Below, piece by piece: positions 21,249 through 63,968 of a DNA stretch of 64,000 nucleotides. The position numbers were made by a program, and so were the translations under genes. The number at the start of each line of letters is the position of its first letter. Within the stretch, counting starts at the first letter, position 1. Below the pieces are notes generated by a model that was given only the letters and a program-made list of their open reading frames with translations, was not told the origin of the DNA and did not search any database. The DNA is from Paraconexibacter algicola (GTDB lineage: Bacteria; Actinomycetota; Thermoleophilia; Solirubrobacterales; Solirubrobacteraceae): NCBI RefSeq assembly GCF_003044185.1, contig NZ_PYYB01000001.1, positions 2,190,978-2,254,977 of the forward strand, given 5' to 3'.

Positions 21249-22808
21249 TCACCGGCGCCAGCGGCCGACGTCCTCGACGACGTCCAGCGCCAGGGCGTCC
21301 CGGAACCGCGCGTCGTGCGTGGCGACGACCAGCCCGCCGCGCCAGCCACGCAGCGCGAGCTCCAGCACCTCGAGCGCCTCGACATCCAGGTGGTTCGTCG
21401 GCTCGTCGAGCACCAGGCATGCCGCGCCCGCATGGGCGAGCAGCGCCAGCTCCGCCCGCGTCCGCTCGCCCGGCGACAGGGTGGCGACCGGGCGCACGGC
21501 CGCCGCCGGCCCCAGGCGGACCGCGGCGAGCGCGGCCCGGGCGGCCTGCTCGTCCAGGCCGCTCACCCGGCGCAGCTCCCCGACGAGCGTCGCCGCGGAC
21601 GGGTCCAGCGCCCCGCGCTCCTGCCCGAGCGCCGCGACCCGTCCGCCGGTCCGCCGACCGCGGACGGGCGCAAGCTCCCCCGTCAGGGCGCGCAGCACCG
21701 TCGTCTTCCCCGCGCCGTTCGGTCCGGTCAGCAGCACGCGCCGCCCCGGGGGCACGTCGAGGTCGACCGGGCCGAGCACGACGTCGCCGACCTGCAGCAC
21801 CGCGCCGACCAGGGCGACGCCCGTCCCGCCGTCGGCGGCGTCGAGCAGCAGCCGGGTGGCGGACTCCTCCCACGGCTTCTCGGGCACCTCGACCTGCTGC
21901 GAGCGCCGGCCGAAGGCGCCCATCCCGTTCTCGGCGCTCTCGGAGAACAGGTGGCGCAGCGACCGGTCCGGGTTCGTCGCAGCGCTGTTGCGGGCCCGGA
22001 CCGCCCCGGCGCGCGCGGCCTCGCGGCGGCGGACCTCGACGGCGCGCAGCCGGTCGCGCTCGGCGACCGCGGTCGCGTGCTCCTCGACCGCCCGCGCCCG
22101 GGCGCGGGCGCGCTCGCGCTCGAAGACCGCCCAGCCGCCGTCCCAGACGGTCGCCTCGCCGCGGTCGAGCTCGAGCACGCGGGTGGTGAGGGCGGCGAGG
22201 AACGCTCGGTCGTGCGAGACGATCACCGACGCACCGCGGTGCTCCAGCACCAGCGCCCGCAGCAGCTCCAGGCCGTCGGCGTCGAGGTGGTTCGTCGGCT
22301 CGTCCAGCAGCAGGACCTCCTGACGCGTCAGCGCCAGCGCCGCGAGCCCCGCGCGGGCGGCCTGCCCACCGGACAGCGACGCGATCGGCCGATCGAGCAG
22401 CGAGGCGGGCAGGCCGACCCGCTCCATCGCGACCGGGATCCGCGCGTCGACGTCCGCCGCCCCGACCGCCATCCAGGACTCGAGCGCCGCGGCGTGCGCG
22501 TCGACGACCGACAGGTCGCCCGCGGCCAGCCGCGCGTCGAGGCCGTCGAGCCGGGCGGCCGCCGCCGCGACCCCGCTGCGCGCGAGCAGCAGCGCCCGGA
22601 CCGAGGGGGCGTCCTCGATCGTCTGCGGCAGCAGCCCGGCCTGCGGGCACCGGGTGTCGAGCTCGCGCAGCAGCGTCGACTTGCCCGAGCCGTTCGGGCC
22701 GACCAGCGCGACGCGATCGCCGCGCGACAGGGAGAGCGAGACGTCGTGCAGCAGCACGCGCTCGCCGTACGAGACGGTGACGCCGTGGGCGTCGAGCAGG
22801 AACGACAA
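21249..22808 (-). CDS. ABC-F family ATPase (ribosome-associated)
   Basis: 519 residues, two ABC domains in one chain and no membrane segments, as in ABC-F translation/antibiotic-resistance factors. Walker A motifs are GPNGSGKST and GPNGAGKTT, signatures are LSGGQAARAGL and LSPGERTRAEL, and both Walker B regions read LLDEPTNHLD or LVLDEPTNHLD. A charged inter-domain linker is rich in Arg/Glu. TTG 22808 is chosen: GGAGGT lies 6 nt upstream and the N-terminus then matches ABC-F proteins (SFLLDAHGVTVSYG). It is unrelated to the catabolic genes around it. Confidence 0.88.
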   Translation of the reverse strand: MSFLLDAHGVTVSYGERVLLHDVSLSLSRGDRVALVGPNGSGKSTLLRELDTRCPQAGLLPQTIEDAPSVRALLLARSGVAAAAARLDGLDARLAAGDLSVVDAHAAALESWMAVGAADVDARIPVAMERVGLPASLLDRPIASLSGGQAARAGLAALALTRQEVLLLDEPTNHLDADGLELLRALVLEHRGASVIVSHDRAFLAALTTRVLELDRGEATVWDGGWAVFERERARARARAVEEHATAVAERDRLRAVEVRRREAARAGAVRARNSAATNPDRSLRHLFSESAENGMGAFGRRSQQVEVPEKPWEESATRLLLDAADGGTGVALVGAVLQVGDVVLGPVDLDVPPGRRVLLTGPNGAGKTTVLRALTGELAPVRGRRTGGRVAALGQERGALDPSAATLVGELRRVSGLDEQAARAALAAVRLGPAAAVRPVATLSPGERTRAELALLAHAGAACLVLDEPTNHLDVEALEVLELALRGWRGGLVVATHDARFRDALALDVVEDVGRWRR

Positions 22809-58303: not shown

Positions 58304-58591
58304 TTAGTTCACCTCGCGCCACGCCGCACGTATCGCCGCGACGAACGGCTCATCGCTCTCGCGTGCTGATGCGTCCAACTCTGAGAACGGGCGCAAGGCC
58401 GGGTGGTCTCCTTGGTTCTCCTGCATCCAAACGGACCATGCGTTGTGGACGTCCTCGTCGGTTACCTGCTCGCCTTTGGCAAGCAGGAGCACGGCGTAGA
58501 TGCGGAAAAGGAGCCCGGTGTCTCCATCTGGCATGACCTCCGAGGGCACCCGGTTTTCGATCTCGGTTGCGATTCGATCGATATACGTCAC
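58304..58591 (-). CDS. Conserved hypothetical protein of TIR-membrane operon
   Basis: 95 residues, soluble and helical (TGLLFRIYAVLLLAKGEQVT, EDVHNAWSVWMQ). I do not recognise a characterised family. Its ATG overlaps the stop of the membrane-protein gene (ATGA, 58588-58591), so it is the third gene of the TIR operon and probably works with it. Confidence 0.7.
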   Translation of the reverse strand: MTYIDRIATEIENRVPSEVMPDGDTGLLFRIYAVLLLAKGEQVTDEDVHNAWSVWMQENQGDHPALRPFSELDASARESDEPFVAAIRAAWREVN

Positions 58592-59106
58592 ACGCCTGCC
58601 TGCCTAAGTAGTTCGATGATGTAGATGAGCGCGAACACAACGGGAACGATGCGCTCGACCTCGCCGAGCTCACGGTATTTGGTCGCCCAGGCAGAGATCC
58701 TCGCACGTCGCCCGACCTCGCCTTGGGCGACCACTTCGCCCTTGTAAAGGCGGTACTCCTCCGAGAACAACTGTCGTGAAAAATCGACTTCCATCGCCGT
58801 AATTACGGCAAACTTCGCGGTGTTCAGTTTTCGGTAGCTGCTCAGTAGTAGCCCCCACGCGAGCGAGAACACGATCCCCGCCGCCGCGACGTACCAACGC
58901 AACGTCGTTCCACCGACCAATGCGACCAGCCCAGTGTTGATAGTCAGAAAGAAGCTGTTGGCGACAGCGCGTCGAGCCGACACTCGATCAGCCATCTCAA
59001 CTGCGAGCTTGTAGAGCTCGAGCCTGTGCTCCGGCATGGCGTCCGAGGCCGCCTCTGCGGCGGCGAGGTCCGGGTCTTGGGAGGAATCGTCGTCGCGCGT
59101 AGTCAT
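58588..59106 (-). CDS. Small membrane protein next to TIR gene (possible RipA- or SLATT-like effector)
   Basis: 172 residues. LELYKLAVEMADRVSARRAV is followed by two membrane helices (NSFFLTINTGLVALVG and WYVAAAGIVFSLAWGLLLSS), a long soluble segment, and a C-terminal hydrophobic helix (RIVPVVFALIYIIELLRQ). The layout resembles small membrane effectors (RipA-family or SLATT-type) that accompany TIR or nucleotide-second-messenger defence genes. Assignment is tentative. Sits 16 bases after the TIR gene. Confidence 0.7.
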   Translation of the reverse strand: MTTRDDDSSQDPDLAAAEAASDAMPEHRLELYKLAVEMADRVSARRAVANSFFLTINTGLVALVGGTTLRWYVAAAGIVFSLAWGLLLSSYRKLNTAKFAVITAMEVDFSRQLFSEEYRLYKGEVVAQGEVGRRARISAWATKYRELGEVERIVPVVFALIYIIELLRQAGV

Positions 59107-59122
59107 GTGACCCCTAGCGGCG

Positions 59123-59536
59123 TTACGCGTTCTTCCCCTCGCCCATCATCTGGTCGACTGCGGCCGCGATGAGCTTCCAGTTCCAGGCCATCGTGCGGTT
59201 GCGCTGCAGGCCCGCCGGCAAGATGCTCGTAGTGCCCGCGCCGTCGACGTACACGCCGAACACTGGCACGTCAGCTTCATGCGCCATCGCGACTTCCTTT
59301 GCGACGCCTCCCGCGGTCTTGAGGTTTCGGCCGACCAGCACGATGCACATGTTCGTGGCTGCAATCTTCTTGGCGATGGTCGCTTCCCAGGTCGCCTGCG
59401 GGAGCGAGCTCTTCGAGGACCAGTCTTGAACGGTGAACGGTGTTGGGGAATCGCTTTTCGCCTGCCCAGCGAACAGCGTCTTTGACGTCTGGTCGTTGTC
59501 GAAGTCGAAGCTGACGAAAGCGCGGGGATCGGGCAT
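59123..59536 (-). CDS. TIR-like domain protein (Thoeris ThsB type)
   Basis: 137 residues. AFVSFDFDND at the N-terminus, FTVQDWSSKSSLPQATWE, CIVLVGRNLKTAGGVAKEV and VFGVYVDGAG fit the ThsB TIR-like fold, which in Thoeris makes a cyclic ADP-ribose-type signal from NAD on phage infection. ATG 59536 with GGAGAA upstream is preferred over a longer frame. First gene of an operon with a membrane protein, in place of the usual ThsA effector. Confidence 0.8.
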   Translation of the reverse strand: MPDPRAFVSFDFDNDQTSKTLFAGQAKSDSPTPFTVQDWSSKSSLPQATWEATIAKKIAATNMCIVLVGRNLKTAGGVAKEVAMAHEADVPVFGVYVDGAGTTSILPAGLQRNRTMAWNWKLIAAAVDQMMGEGKNA

Positions 59537-59702
59537 CTTGTTCTCCAGTGGTGGCGTTGCTTCAGACGGTACGCCTGCCGCCGGTCGGGATCGATTCGGC
59601 TGATAGTGGTGACCGTCCCACACAGGCGGCTATGCTCGCGGCTCCAGCGGTCGCGTCGGGAGTCCTCGGACCGTTCTCACGTCTCGTATCGAAGCGATAA
59701 TC

Positions 59703-60775: not shown

Positions 60776-61762
60776 TCATGCCGCCACCGCTAGTCGCGAG
60801 GCTGCCAGCGCCTGGGCCACCGATTCTCCGACTGCCCTTGCGACCGGGGGAGGGAACGCGTTTCCGATCTGCCGGTACTGGGCGGTCTTCCTGCCCGCGA
60901 AATCCCAGTCGTCGGGGAATCCCTGAAGACGAGCTGTCATGCGAACGGTGAGTCGCGGCTGGTGATCAGCCGGAGCCGCCGGCCCAGGAGCGGCGTCTGC
61001 AATACCCATCCCGCTGCAGCCGAGCGTCGTCCACTCACGCTTGGCGCGAGTGGGACCTAGGTCTGGACCTCCGTGTTTCTTAGAGCCGCCGACGAGAGTC
61101 GGTGCGATGCGGTCGGCGCGAGAGGCCCAGTCGTCGGCATGGGGCCAGCCATCTGCTCCCATGAGGTCTTTAAGTGCGTCGCCGACCGTAGGTGCGGGCT
61201 GGGGGCTCGGTTTGGGCCACGTCCAGTCCGCTCGGAGATCGTCACGTAGGGCCACCAGAACCGCCCGTGGTCGAAGCTGCGGAACTCCGTAGTCGGAGGC
61301 CTGCAACAGCGCCCATTCCGCGTTGCTGTAGCCGATCGCCTCGAGGCGCTCCAGAATGGCGCCACGGTAGGGCTCAAACTTTCTTCCCATAAGACCACGG
61401 ACGTTCTCGATCATCACGGCGCCGGGCTGGAGACCCTCTGCGAGGTCGAGAATGGCTGGGAAAAGGTCTCGTTCGTCGTCGGCGCCGAGTTGCTTGCCGG
61501 CCATCGAGAACGGCGGGCATGGGACGCCGCCCGCGAGCAAGTCGCAGCCGGCATGTTCGTCGAGGCAACCCTCGGCAACGACGGCCCGGAGATCACGCTC
61601 AATGACAGTCCACTTCGGCCTGTTCAGACGGAGCGTCGCGCAGGCATGCGCGTCGATCTCGACACAGGCAAGGTGCTCGAATCCCGCCTGCGCGAGGCCC
61701 AGAGCCTGCCCGCCGGCCCCAGCGCATACCTCGACGCTTGTAAGCGGTGTCGGCGTGGACAT
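60776..61762 (-). CDS. C5-cytosine DNA methyltransferase
   Basis: 328 residues. Motif I VEVCAGAGGQALGLAQAGF, motif IV GGVPCPPFSMAGK (catalytic Cys), motif VI MIENVRGLMG, motif VIII QLRPRAVLVAL and motif X QIGNAFPPPVARA, in the normal order. The target-recognition region between VIII and IX is about 90 residues. ATG 61762 chosen (MSTPTPLTSVEVC). It pairs with the HNH-like gene upstream in the same direction, forming a likely restriction-modification unit. Confidence 0.9.
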   Translation of the reverse strand: MSTPTPLTSVEVCAGAGGQALGLAQAGFEHLACVEIDAHACATLRLNRPKWTVIERDLRAVVAEGCLDEHAGCDLLAGGVPCPPFSMAGKQLGADDERDLFPAILDLAEGLQPGAVMIENVRGLMGRKFEPYRGAILERLEAIGYSNAEWALLQASDYGVPQLRPRAVLVALRDDLRADWTWPKPSPQPAPTVGDALKDLMGADGWPHADDWASRADRIAPTLVGGSKKHGGPDLGPTRAKREWTTLGCSGMGIADAAPGPAAPADHQPRLTVRMTARLQGFPDDWDFAGRKTAQYRQIGNAFPPPVARAVGESVAQALAASRLAVAA

Positions 61763-61805: not shown

Positions 61806-62471
61806 CTAGTCGGCCTGAAGCATGGCTCGTATCTCATTGCGCTCGGCGTCGGACGCACGGCGATACAGCGCCCAGGCTCGCTCGAGGGCAGACGACCCGC
61901 GCTCCTCGACGCCGACCCATACACGTAGCGTTGCGCGGTCTTCAGCCGACAGCGCACGGACCTCGTCGACGGCCGAGGCCGCGATCGTGCCATTCCGCAG
62001 GCTGCCGAGACACCGGTCGCACAGGCATTCGAGCCCAGCACTGCCGCCCGGACGTGAAACGCGTGCGGCGCCCAGCTTTGCACGCCTGAGCGGATCTTCC
62101 GGGTAGGAGTCGCCCGCCGTGATTCCGCAGAACCGGCACAGGTAGTCCGCGGCCGCGAGGACCGCCTGACGTTCCTTGGCCGTGGGCACTTTGGGCGCGC
62201 GCGACTCGTAGCCAGGCTCCCAAACCGCGCCGCCCATCGCCTGAAGTCGCAACTGCTCAGGCGCGAGGGTGACGTCTTCGCGGTTTGTCGCGATCACCCA
62301 GCCTTCAGCCCGGAGGTCGCGCATACGACGATCGACTTGTTCAACGCCCTCGAACGCCGCTCGGAGGTCGGCTTTAGTGAAGACGCCTCCGACGCCCACC
62401 TCGGACGCCAGCCACAGCGCGACGCGAGTTCGCGTGCCCGCGTCAGATGCGCGCCAATCCGGGAGACTCAT
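61806..62471 (-). CDS. HNH-like zinc-binding putative restriction endonuclease
   Basis: 221 residues. The N-terminal half has a winged-helix-like region (VFTKADLRAAFEGVEQVDRR). The C-terminal half contains CRFCGI and CDRC about 45 residues apart, a zinc knuckle frame like that of HNH endonucleases. The canonical His of HNH between them is not obvious (GAARVSRPGGSAG), so the nuclease may be atypical or inactive. Its position next to a cytosine methyltransferase suggests restriction. GGAGAGG, half of the adjacent palindrome, serves as ribosome-binding site. Confidence 0.65.
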   Translation of the reverse strand: MSLPDWRASDAGTRTRVALWLASEVGVGGVFTKADLRAAFEGVEQVDRRMRDLRAEGWVIATNREDVTLAPEQLRLQAMGGAVWEPGYESRAPKVPTAKERQAVLAAADYLCRFCGITAGDSYPEDPLRRAKLGAARVSRPGGSAGLECLCDRCLGSLRNGTIAASAVDEVRALSAEDRATLRVWVGVEERGSSALERAWALYRRASDAERNEIRAMLQAD

Positions 62472-62477
62472 GGTCGT

Positions 62478-62499
62478 ATCCTCTCCGATCGGAGAGGAT
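62478..62499. promoter_or_regulatory. Perfect 22-bp palindrome between divergent genes
   Basis: Arms ATCCTCTCCGA and TCGGAGAGGAT, no mismatch, no spacer. It lies 6 bases from the HNH-like start (62471) and 3 bases before a 12-codon leader ORF (62503). Both arms contain GGAGAGG in the direction of the flanking gene, so they double as Shine-Dalgarno sequences. A protein bound to the DNA, or a hairpin in either RNA, would silence both sides. Confidence 0.75.
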
Positions 62500-62502
62500 G
62501 GA

Positions 62503-62541
62503 ATGAGACGACGTTTTGCCGAGCCTGGAGGAGGCCGATGA
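62503..62541 (+). CDS. 12-codon leader peptide upstream of ParB-domain gene
   Basis: Reads MRRRFAEPGGGR then TGA. GGAGAGG 5 bases upstream is a good ribosome-binding site, and its TGA overlaps the next ATG (ATGA, 62538-62541). Coupled translation would make expression of the ParB-domain protein depend on access to the palindrome. Predicted from sequence only. Confidence 0.45.
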   Translation: MRRRFAEPGGGR

Positions 62542-63968
62542 CCGCCGTGCGCCCGCCGAACCACAACGAAGTCCGCGCCCTCATCGAAGAACGCCTCAGC
62601 GCGTTCGAGCAGGGTACGGGTGAAACCGTGAGCATCGACTGGCGCGACGACGAAAAGCGAACGCTGAGCGTGATCAAGCTCCCGGTCAACGCGCTCTATT
62701 TTAATCCGGACACGCACCGCATCCGTGCTCAGCGAACGCTCGATCCAGAGAAGGATCGTCAGCTGAGTGAAGACAAGTACAGCGCCGAAGCGCAGGCGTA
62801 CCTGCGGGATCTTCTGCGCGGTGACCCGTCCGATCCGAGCAAGGTCGACCCGGCGTTCGAGAAGCTCAAGGACGACCTCCGCGAGCACGGGCAAAACGAC
62901 CCCGGGATCGTGACGCGCGATGGCGTGCTGATCAACGGCAACACGCGGTGCGCCGCCCTTCGGGAGCTCGGCGTGGATCACATCCGCGTCGGCGTGCTGC
63001 CGACGGACACGAACCTCGATGACATCAACGCTGTCGAGCTGACGCTGCAGTTGCGGAAGGACCATCGCCGCGACTACTCATTCATGAATCTGCTGCTGGC
63101 CATCGACGAACGCGTCAAGGCCGGGTGGACGACGAAGCGCATCCAGCGCGAGTTCCGGTTCACGGCAAAAACCGTGGACAGGAATCGGTGGATCCTGAGT
63201 CAGGTACGCGAACTCATCGAACGAAGCACGGTTACTCACGCCGATGGCAGCACGACGGCGCTTCGCCTCGTCGATTTCGAGACCGATCAGGGGAAGCTCG
63301 AGGAGCTGCATCGCGCCTACACCGTTCTTAAGGCGGCGTCACCTGATCAGGCCGAGCAGCTTCGAGAGCAGCGCCTCCTCGCAATCGCGATGGATCACTC
63401 GAAGACCGACGTGCGGTTCATCGAACCGGACTTCATCGAGCGGCACGGCGCTGAGCTCAAGACGCTCGTCCCGAGCGGTGAAGTACCCGCGCCGCAGCCC
63501 GCTGCCATCCCGGGAACATCGATCGTGCCCGAGGCGCCGTCCAAAGAAGCATGGGACCTCGAGCGCTTGACGACGGAGGTCCTGCGGGCGAAGGCGATCC
63601 ACCGATCGACGGCGACGACGGACCACGACGCGCGCGAGCGCGCGAACGAGACGATCACGCGCACGAGGGCCGCCCTGAAGTCCGCGCTTGACAAGGCGGG
63701 CAAGACCGCGCTGCTTGAGAAAAAGAAGCGCGGCCCGCTGGAGCGGCTCAGCGATGCAAACGATGATGTCTTGGCGGCTCGCGACGACATTGTCGCCGCG
63801 AAGGCGACGGGTAATTTCGAGCCGGACGAACTCGACGACGTTCTCCTCAGCCTTCGTGCGGGCCTTCGAAAGCTCGCGGAGGCCGCGCGAACCGATCCCG
63901 CGAGTCCGGCCACCGGCGTGAGGTGGTTGATGCGGGTGGCTGCCTTGAGCACCGAAGAAGCGGACTGA
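62538..63968 (+). CDS. ParB-N-domain protein of defence/R-M island
   Basis: 476 residues. A ParB-like nuclease/CTPase-type domain at about 45-170: VIKLPVNALYFNPDTHRI and DGVLINGNTRCAALREL (the GNTRCAA box). A helix-turn-helix-like region follows (TKRIQREFRFTAKTVDRNRW, about 215-235), then long coiled helical segments rich in Lys/Glu. Not a chromosomal ParB: no parA neighbour and island location. GGAGGAGG precedes the ATG. Divergent from the HNH/methyltransferase pair; a stand-alone regulator or a system component are both possible. Confidence 0.75.
   Translation: MTAVRPPNHNEVRALIEERLSAFEQGTGETVSIDWRDDEKRTLSVIKLPVNALYFNPDTHRIRAQRTLDPEKDRQLSEDKYSAEAQAYLRDLLRGDPSDPSKVDPAFEKLKDDLREHGQNDPGIVTRDGVLINGNTRCAALRELGVDHIRVGVLPTDTNLDDINAVELTLQLRKDHRRDYSFMNLLLAIDERVKAGWTTKRIQREFRFTAKTVDRNRWILSQVRELIERSTVTHADGSTTALRLVDFETDQGKLEELHRAYTVLKAASPDQAEQLREQRLLAIAMDHSKTDVRFIEPDFIERHGAELKTLVPSGEVPAPQPAAIPGTSIVPEAPSKEAWDLERLTTEVLRAKAIHRSTATTDHDARERANETITRTRAALKSALDKAGKTALLEKKKRGPLERLSDANDDVLAARDDIVAAKATGNFEPDELDDVLLSLRAGLRKLAEAARTDPASPATGVRWLMRVAALSTEEAD

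What the first reader, a model, noticed from the sequence alone, without database searches (positions are those of the whole stretch)
61806..63968. A 22-bp palindrome whose arms are Shine-Dalgarno sites for two divergent genes
The palindrome at 62478-62499 is perfect over 22 bp. Each arm places GGAGAGG at a functional distance from a start codon: 62471 on the minus strand (HNH-like) and 62503 on the plus strand (a 12-codon leader ORF). The leader's TGA overlaps the ATG of the ParB-domain gene. The site could be a control-protein operator, an RNA switch, or both, coordinating a restriction gene with a ParB-domain gene.
Basis: seen in the sequence. Interest (0 to 1): 0.6.

Follow-up and report, generated by a model that had tools for sequence, protein, structure and literature searches.

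The report
Palindrome between two defence operons
A perfect 22-letter DNA palindrome sits in the 66-base gap between the two halves of a five-gene restriction-modification-like defence system, where it probably serves as a local on/off site, but relatives of the system lack it, so it is a one-off feature and not a general switch.

Summary
The palindrome ATCCTCTCCGATCGGAGAGGAT (62478-62499) is real, perfect, and unique in the genome even with 3 mismatches. It fills a third of a 66-bp gap between two divergent genes. About 1e-5 such palindromes are expected in that gap, but 0.1-0.25 in the whole window.

The Shine-Dalgarno claim is half right. One arm is a plausible, moderate SD for the minus-strand gene, whose ATG homology supports. 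The other arm serves only a 12-codon ORF that relatives lack and that shuffles produce 17% of the time. The ParB-like gene has its own strong SD (GGAGGAGG, 62527-62534).

The genes are not just a restriction gene plus a ParB gene. They belong to a recurrent five-gene system: C5-methyltransferase (relatives accompany NaeI or NgoMIV), winged-helix/pseudo-HNH protein, ParB-like HTH protein, SNF2 ATPase and NOV_C nuclease. The HNH catalytic His is lost in all 34 ParB-linked members examined. Four relatives share the divergent layout, and none has this palindrome or a comparable one. Inverted repeats are not enriched upstream of the HNH-like gene in 33 relatives.

Best reading: a locus-specific dyad operator in a bidirectional 5' region (inferred, about 0.45). 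Chance and an RNA hairpin remain open. The more interesting lead is the dead-HNH system itself.

The parts
62478..62499 (.). perfect 22-bp palindrome ATCCTCTCCGATCGGAGAGGAT
   Evidence: unique in genome at up to 3 mismatches
62480..62486 (-). GGAGAGG, SD-like arm of the HNH-like gene (8-nt spacer to ATG 62471)
   Evidence: anti-SD duplex -11.6 / -7.2 kcal/mol
62491..62497 (+). GGAGAGG, SD-like arm before the 12-codon ORF (5-nt spacer)
62503..62541 (+). 12-codon ORF (MRRRFAEPGGGR), TGA overlaps the ParB-like ATG; probably not a conserved leader
   Evidence: no matching ORF in relatives; 17% of shuffles give one
62527..62534 (+). GGAGGAGG, the ParB-like gene's own SD
   Evidence: -12.0 kcal/mol
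61806..62471 (-). winged-helix + degenerate HNH (Cys4 kept, catalytic His lost) protein, 221 aa
   Evidence: start codon supported by homologous N-termini
60776..61759 (-). C5-cytosine DNA methyltransferase (ATG 61759 proposed from the alignment), predicted GCCGGC-type
   Evidence: PF00145 1.7e-64; conserved target-recognition stretch; relatives next to NaeI / NgoMIV
62538..63968 (+). ParB/Srx-fold protein with GNTR box II, HTH region and long C-terminal helices, 476 aa
63970..64000 (+). start of the SNF2-family ATPase gene (continues to about 65766 outside the window; L002:48-1844). A NOV_C / PD-(D/E)XK protein follows at about 65753-66658 (L002:1831-2736)

Best explanation
The palindrome is most likely a locus-specific, dyad-symmetric protein-binding site (operator) in the very short 5' region shared by the two divergent arms of one defence system: methyltransferase + pseudo-HNH on the minus strand, ParB-like + SNF2 + NOV_C on the plus strand. 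A symmetric dimer bound there would cover the ribosome-binding region of the HNH-like gene and the start region of both transcripts, and so throttle the modification arm and the restriction arm together. Shown: position, symmetry, uniqueness, gene context, and two encoded proteins with probable DNA-binding folds. Inferred: that a protein binds, and which one. First candidate is the ParB-like protein (HTH of ParB/KorB type, a family known to bind palindromes and repress). Second is the winged-helix/pseudo-HNH protein, whose ancestral specificity is more likely the system's own target. A host regulator is possible.
For: Palindrome much longer than expected for this 66-bp gap and the only one of its kind in the genome, as expected of an autoregulatory site. 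It lies between genes that travel together. The ParB-like family has a conserved HTH-like stretch after the ParB/Srx domain, and the HNH-like family has a winged helix. KorB, a ParB relative, binds palindromic operators and represses (PMC11790492). Short divergent regions with one shared control protein are used in R-M systems such as Kpn2I (PMC6237814).
Against: No conservation in any relative (identity about 36-46%), including the four with the same divergent layout. No inverted-repeat enrichment upstream of the HNH-like gene in 33 relatives (Fisher p 0.79). No recognisable sigma-70 promoter in the region. No binding data.
Confidence: 0.45

Rival explanations
1. Neutral palindrome: a chance or mutational product (for example template-switch duplication of an SD-containing arm) without regulatory function.
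For: Not conserved in any relative; 0.11-0.25 such palindromes expected per window and about 10 per genome; each arm is close to an SD, which is common sequence.
Against: Expected only about 1e-5 in this gap; base-mixed, unlike the C/G-only other palindrome of the window.
Confidence: 0.27
2. RNA switch: the palindrome folds in the transcript of either strand as a 9-bp hairpin with a GAUC loop that hides the SD of the HNH-like gene (and of the small ORF) until something opens it.
For: Hairpin -14.5 kcal/mol, and it pairs exactly the GGAGAGG. Inverted repeats upstream of the ParB-like gene are somewhat enriched in relatives (p 0.005 against base shuffles).
Against: Works only if transcripts start outside the palindrome, and no promoter is seen. 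The ParB-like gene has its own SD outside the hairpin. The relatives' repeats differ in sequence and position and are GC-rich intercistronic stems that could be terminators.
Confidence: 0.15
3. Operator of a host regulator unrelated to the system.
For: A dyad in a 5' region.
Against: No second copy in the genome. In 146 family genomes no copy is closer than 2 mismatches; of nine near-matches examined (one in the own genome, eight in relatives) most lie in plausible or mutually homologous coding sequence, the rest are unclear.
Confidence: 0.08
4. Methylation feedback: the system's own methyltransferase modifies the palindrome and so senses its own level.
For: A C5-methyltransferase is encoded next door.
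Against: Relatives with the same target-recognition stretch accompany NaeI and NgoMIV, both GCCGGC enzymes. There is no GCCGGC from 62380 to 62640. The enzyme has no N-terminal HTH extension.
Confidence: 0.05

Closest known systems
NaeI/NgoMIV-type (GCCGGC) type II R-M systems
   Same: Methyltransferase about 60% identical, with the same target-recognition stretch as the NaeI-linked one; in Rhodococcus pROB02 a wH-HNH relative lies between the methyltransferase and NaeI
   Different: No NaeI or NgoMIV enzyme was found at this locus; HNH degenerate; ParB-like, SNF2 and NOV_C genes instead
C-protein-controlled R-M systems (Kpn2I, EcoRV)
   Same: Short shared regulatory region; divergent genes as in Kpn2I
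   Different: No XRE-type C gene recognised here; a single perfect 22-bp palindrome, not a two-dimer C-box; no conservation
KorB/ParB operators (O_B, parS)
   Same: Palindrome near the gene of a ParB-fold HTH protein
   Different: 22 bp and single copy; box II is GNTR, not the canonical GERR (own knowledge); binding untested
SNF2-containing defence systems (DISARM DrmD, Zorya ZorD, Dpd DpdE)
   Same: SNF2 ATPase with a nuclease and, in DISARM, a C5-methyltransferase; weak profile hits
   Different: None of the other signature subunits of those systems was detected; different gene set

Membership tests
C-protein-controlled R-M system | small XRE-type HTH controller gene in the system | tested here: not met
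   Proteins scanned around the site show no XRE domain; ORFs below 50 aa were not scanned
C-protein-controlled R-M system | C-box repeats conserved upstream of the controlled genes of relatives | tested here: not met
   no palindrome in relatives, no enrichment of inverted repeats upstream of the HNH-like gene
Methyltransferase-autoregulated R-M (M.SsoII type) | N-terminal HTH extension on the C5-methyltransferase | tested here: not met
   the methylase domain begins within about the first 10 residues from the proposed ATG
HNH restriction endonuclease | catalytic His of the beta-beta-alpha metal motif | tested here: not met
   GHLIP in the NaeI-linked relative, AARVSRP here, mostly xARR in the ParB-linked clade; no Pfam PF01844/PF14279 HNH hit in 22 members while relatives L016 and L020 pass those cut-offs
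ParB/KorB DNA clamp | ParB/Srx fold followed by HTH | tested here: inconclusive
   PHROG ParB-like hits, helices at 182-229, conserved HTH-like stretch; model confidence low (59.8), no Pfam ParB hit
ParB/KorB DNA clamp | CTP-dependent clamp loading at a palindrome | not testable with these tools
   needs biochemistry
ATP-dependent restriction (SNF2 + PD-(D/E)XK) | intact Walker A and nuclease motifs | tested here: met
   VPGAGKT in SNF2; GE...GYDI...EVK in NOV_C
ATP-dependent restriction (SNF2 + PD-(D/E)XK) | restriction of unmodified DNA | not testable with these tools
   needs phage plating or cleavage assays

The most novel reading that the evidence does not exclude
The palindrome marks the control point of an undescribed five-gene, SNF2-powered restriction-modification type in which a former HNH restriction enzyme has become a catalytically dead DNA-recognition subunit and cutting has passed to a NOV_C nuclease, with a ParB-like switch loading at, and repressing from, the palindrome.
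Probability: 0.15. Interest if true: 0.65.

Novelty: new variant of a known kind. Interest (0 to 1): 0.38.

Why it matters
The palindrome alone is a candidate local operator of modest interest. Its context matters more: a recurrent defence-like system (its HNH-like gene is in 45 of 298 sampled genomes of one actinobacterial family) that pairs a predicted GCCGGC-type methyltransferase with a dead-HNH protein, a ParB-like protein, an SNF2 motor and, in some loci, a separate NOV_C nuclease. If it restricts DNA, it shows a type II enzyme recast as a subunit of an ATP-dependent restriction machine, and raises the question of how such a machine is kept off until the host is methylated; the gap with the palindrome would be the obvious place to look.

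Tried and rejected
Conservation of the palindrome: an exact scan of viral contigs found none, and family genomes gave only matches at 2 mismatches, several of them homologous coding sequence. Family-wide operator: no inverted-repeat enrichment upstream of HNH-like genes. Sigma-70 promoters and terminators: none found. Restriction-site avoidance in about 84 kb: nothing telling for GCCGGC or CGATCG. Viral relatives of either protein: none. Closer relatives in the own order and class: none for the HNH-like protein in 232 genomes, only distant ParB-like ones in 399. Foldseek on the HNH-like model: only weak hits (E above 2), several of them winged helices; the HNH part was modelled poorly. PDB profile searches: nothing convincing. 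Papers: no description of this gene set in the open-access library with the terms tried. The gene neighbourhood of the gonococcal methyltransferase relative could not be read because that record carries no annotation there.

Full report
Observation. The sequence reads ATG (62471, minus), ATCCTCTCCGATCGGAGAGGAT (62478-62499), ATG (62503), GGAGGAGG (62527-62534), ATG (62538). The palindrome is perfect and occurs once in the 4.74-Mb genome even when 3 mismatches are allowed; its 18-bp core has one other match, with 3 mismatches, in probable coding sequence. The window has 11 perfect palindromes of 16 bp or more and two of 22 bp, with 0.11 to 0.25 of the latter expected. In the 66-bp gap about 1e-5 are expected, and 1 in 200,000 base shuffles reaches 22 bp.

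Shine-Dalgarno arms. The HNH-like start at 62471 is supported by homologous N-termini (MSLPDW against MSLPSW), so the minus arm is a plausible SD (-11.6 kcal/mol with a 15-nt 16S tail, -7.2 with the core; 9% of random 22-mers reach -10 or lower with the longer tail). The plus arm ends 40 nt before the ParB-like ATG and cannot be its SD; that gene has GGAGGAGG (-12.0) at a good distance. No ORF matching the 12-codon one is kept in relatives, and one arises in 17% of shuffles. So the arms serve one real gene and one doubtful ORF.

What the genes are. The minus-strand arm holds a C5-methyltransferase (PF00145, 1.7e-64) and a 221-aa protein with a winged helix (HTH_39, weak hits in 10 of 22 family members) and a Cys4 HNH-like domain. 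The plus-strand arm holds a ParB-like protein (PHROG hits), an SNF2 ATPase and a NOV_C protein, the last two just outside the window. The gene set recurs: 45 of 298 genomes of one actinobacterial family have the HNH-like gene. In all 30 loci fetched by that search it adjoins the ParB-like gene. In the 22 wider loci that have the gene (partly the same places) the HNH-like, ParB-like and SNF2 genes are adjacent in that order, with a C5-methyltransferase close by in 20; NOV_C was recognised in four of these and in a plasmid locus without the HNH-like gene. The exact five-gene layout, (methyltransferase, HNH-like) divergent from (ParB-like, SNF2, NOV_C), is seen in L018, L072 (= L025) and L073 (= L027); L026 shows the same divergent arrangement within the stretch read.

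Dead HNH. The NaeI-linked Rhodococcus HNH reads LTIGHLIPVARGG; the 34 ParB-linked members examined, window included (LGAARVSRPGG), lack the His and mostly read xARR. Pfam HNH models pass their cut-offs in relatives L016 and L020 and hit none of 22 ParB-linked members. The four cysteines are kept. I infer a DNA-recognition rather than a cutting role. NOV_C keeps the GE...GYDI...E(V/A)K pattern, so it is the likely nuclease where present.

Predicted target. The stretch APTLVGGSKKHGGPDLGPTRAK is nearly invariant between this methyltransferase and aligned relatives, one of them beside NaeI in Rhodococcus. Others about 60% identical over the whole length stand beside NgoMIV-family enzymes in Achromobacter and Paracoccus plasmids; their recognition stretch was not aligned. 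NaeI and NgoMIV both cut GCCGGC (own knowledge). The gap and its surroundings hold no GCCGGC, so the palindrome is not expected to be a substrate of the methyltransferase.

Conservation test. None of the relatives has the palindrome. The divergent relatives have wider gaps with short, unrelated repeats. Across 33 relatives, inverted repeats upstream of the HNH-like gene are no better than shuffles (p 0.79), while the window is the extreme case. Upstream of the ParB-like gene there is a mild excess (p 0.005, base shuffles only), made of GC-rich stems in some co-directional operons; these may be terminators. All relatives are at about 36-46% protein identity, so a fast-changing operator need not be recognisable: absence argues against a general element, less against a local one.

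Mechanism. I favour a DNA operator (0.45): dyad symmetry, uniqueness, position over both starts, and a ParB-like HTH protein encoded alongside, with KorB as precedent for a ParB relative that represses from palindromes (PMC11790492). The pseudo-HNH protein is second choice, because its ancestry suggests it reads the system's own target. The RNA hairpin (-14.5 kcal/mol) stays possible if transcripts start outside the palindrome. Chance is not excluded. Shown: sequence, context, motif loss. Inferred: binding, regulation, restriction.

Corrections while working.

Noticed in passing
57465-66660 (window and L002): Island of lower GC3 (mostly 0.73-0.79; transposase remnant at its left edge 0.89; many genes further out above 0.9) carrying several defence-like genes.
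   Followed up: partly
58304-59623, minus strand: DUF7701, 8xMP membrane protein and a ThsB-like TIR protein in a row: a second candidate defence cassette.
   Followed up: no
L016:5457-9316: Rhodococcus opacus plasmid pROB02: C5-methyltransferase, wH-HNH with intact motif, NaeI and Vsr side by side.
   Followed up: partly
L030, L033, L047, L048, L031, L036, L045: GC-rich inverted repeats just upstream of the ParB-like gene in co-directional operons; possible terminators or attenuators.
   Followed up: partly
22089-22110: Second perfect 22-bp palindrome of the window, C/G only.
   Followed up: no
L005:9556-13017: DruF/DruL-like fusion (Druantia) next to the relative in Nocardiopsis ganjiahuensis.
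   Followed up: no
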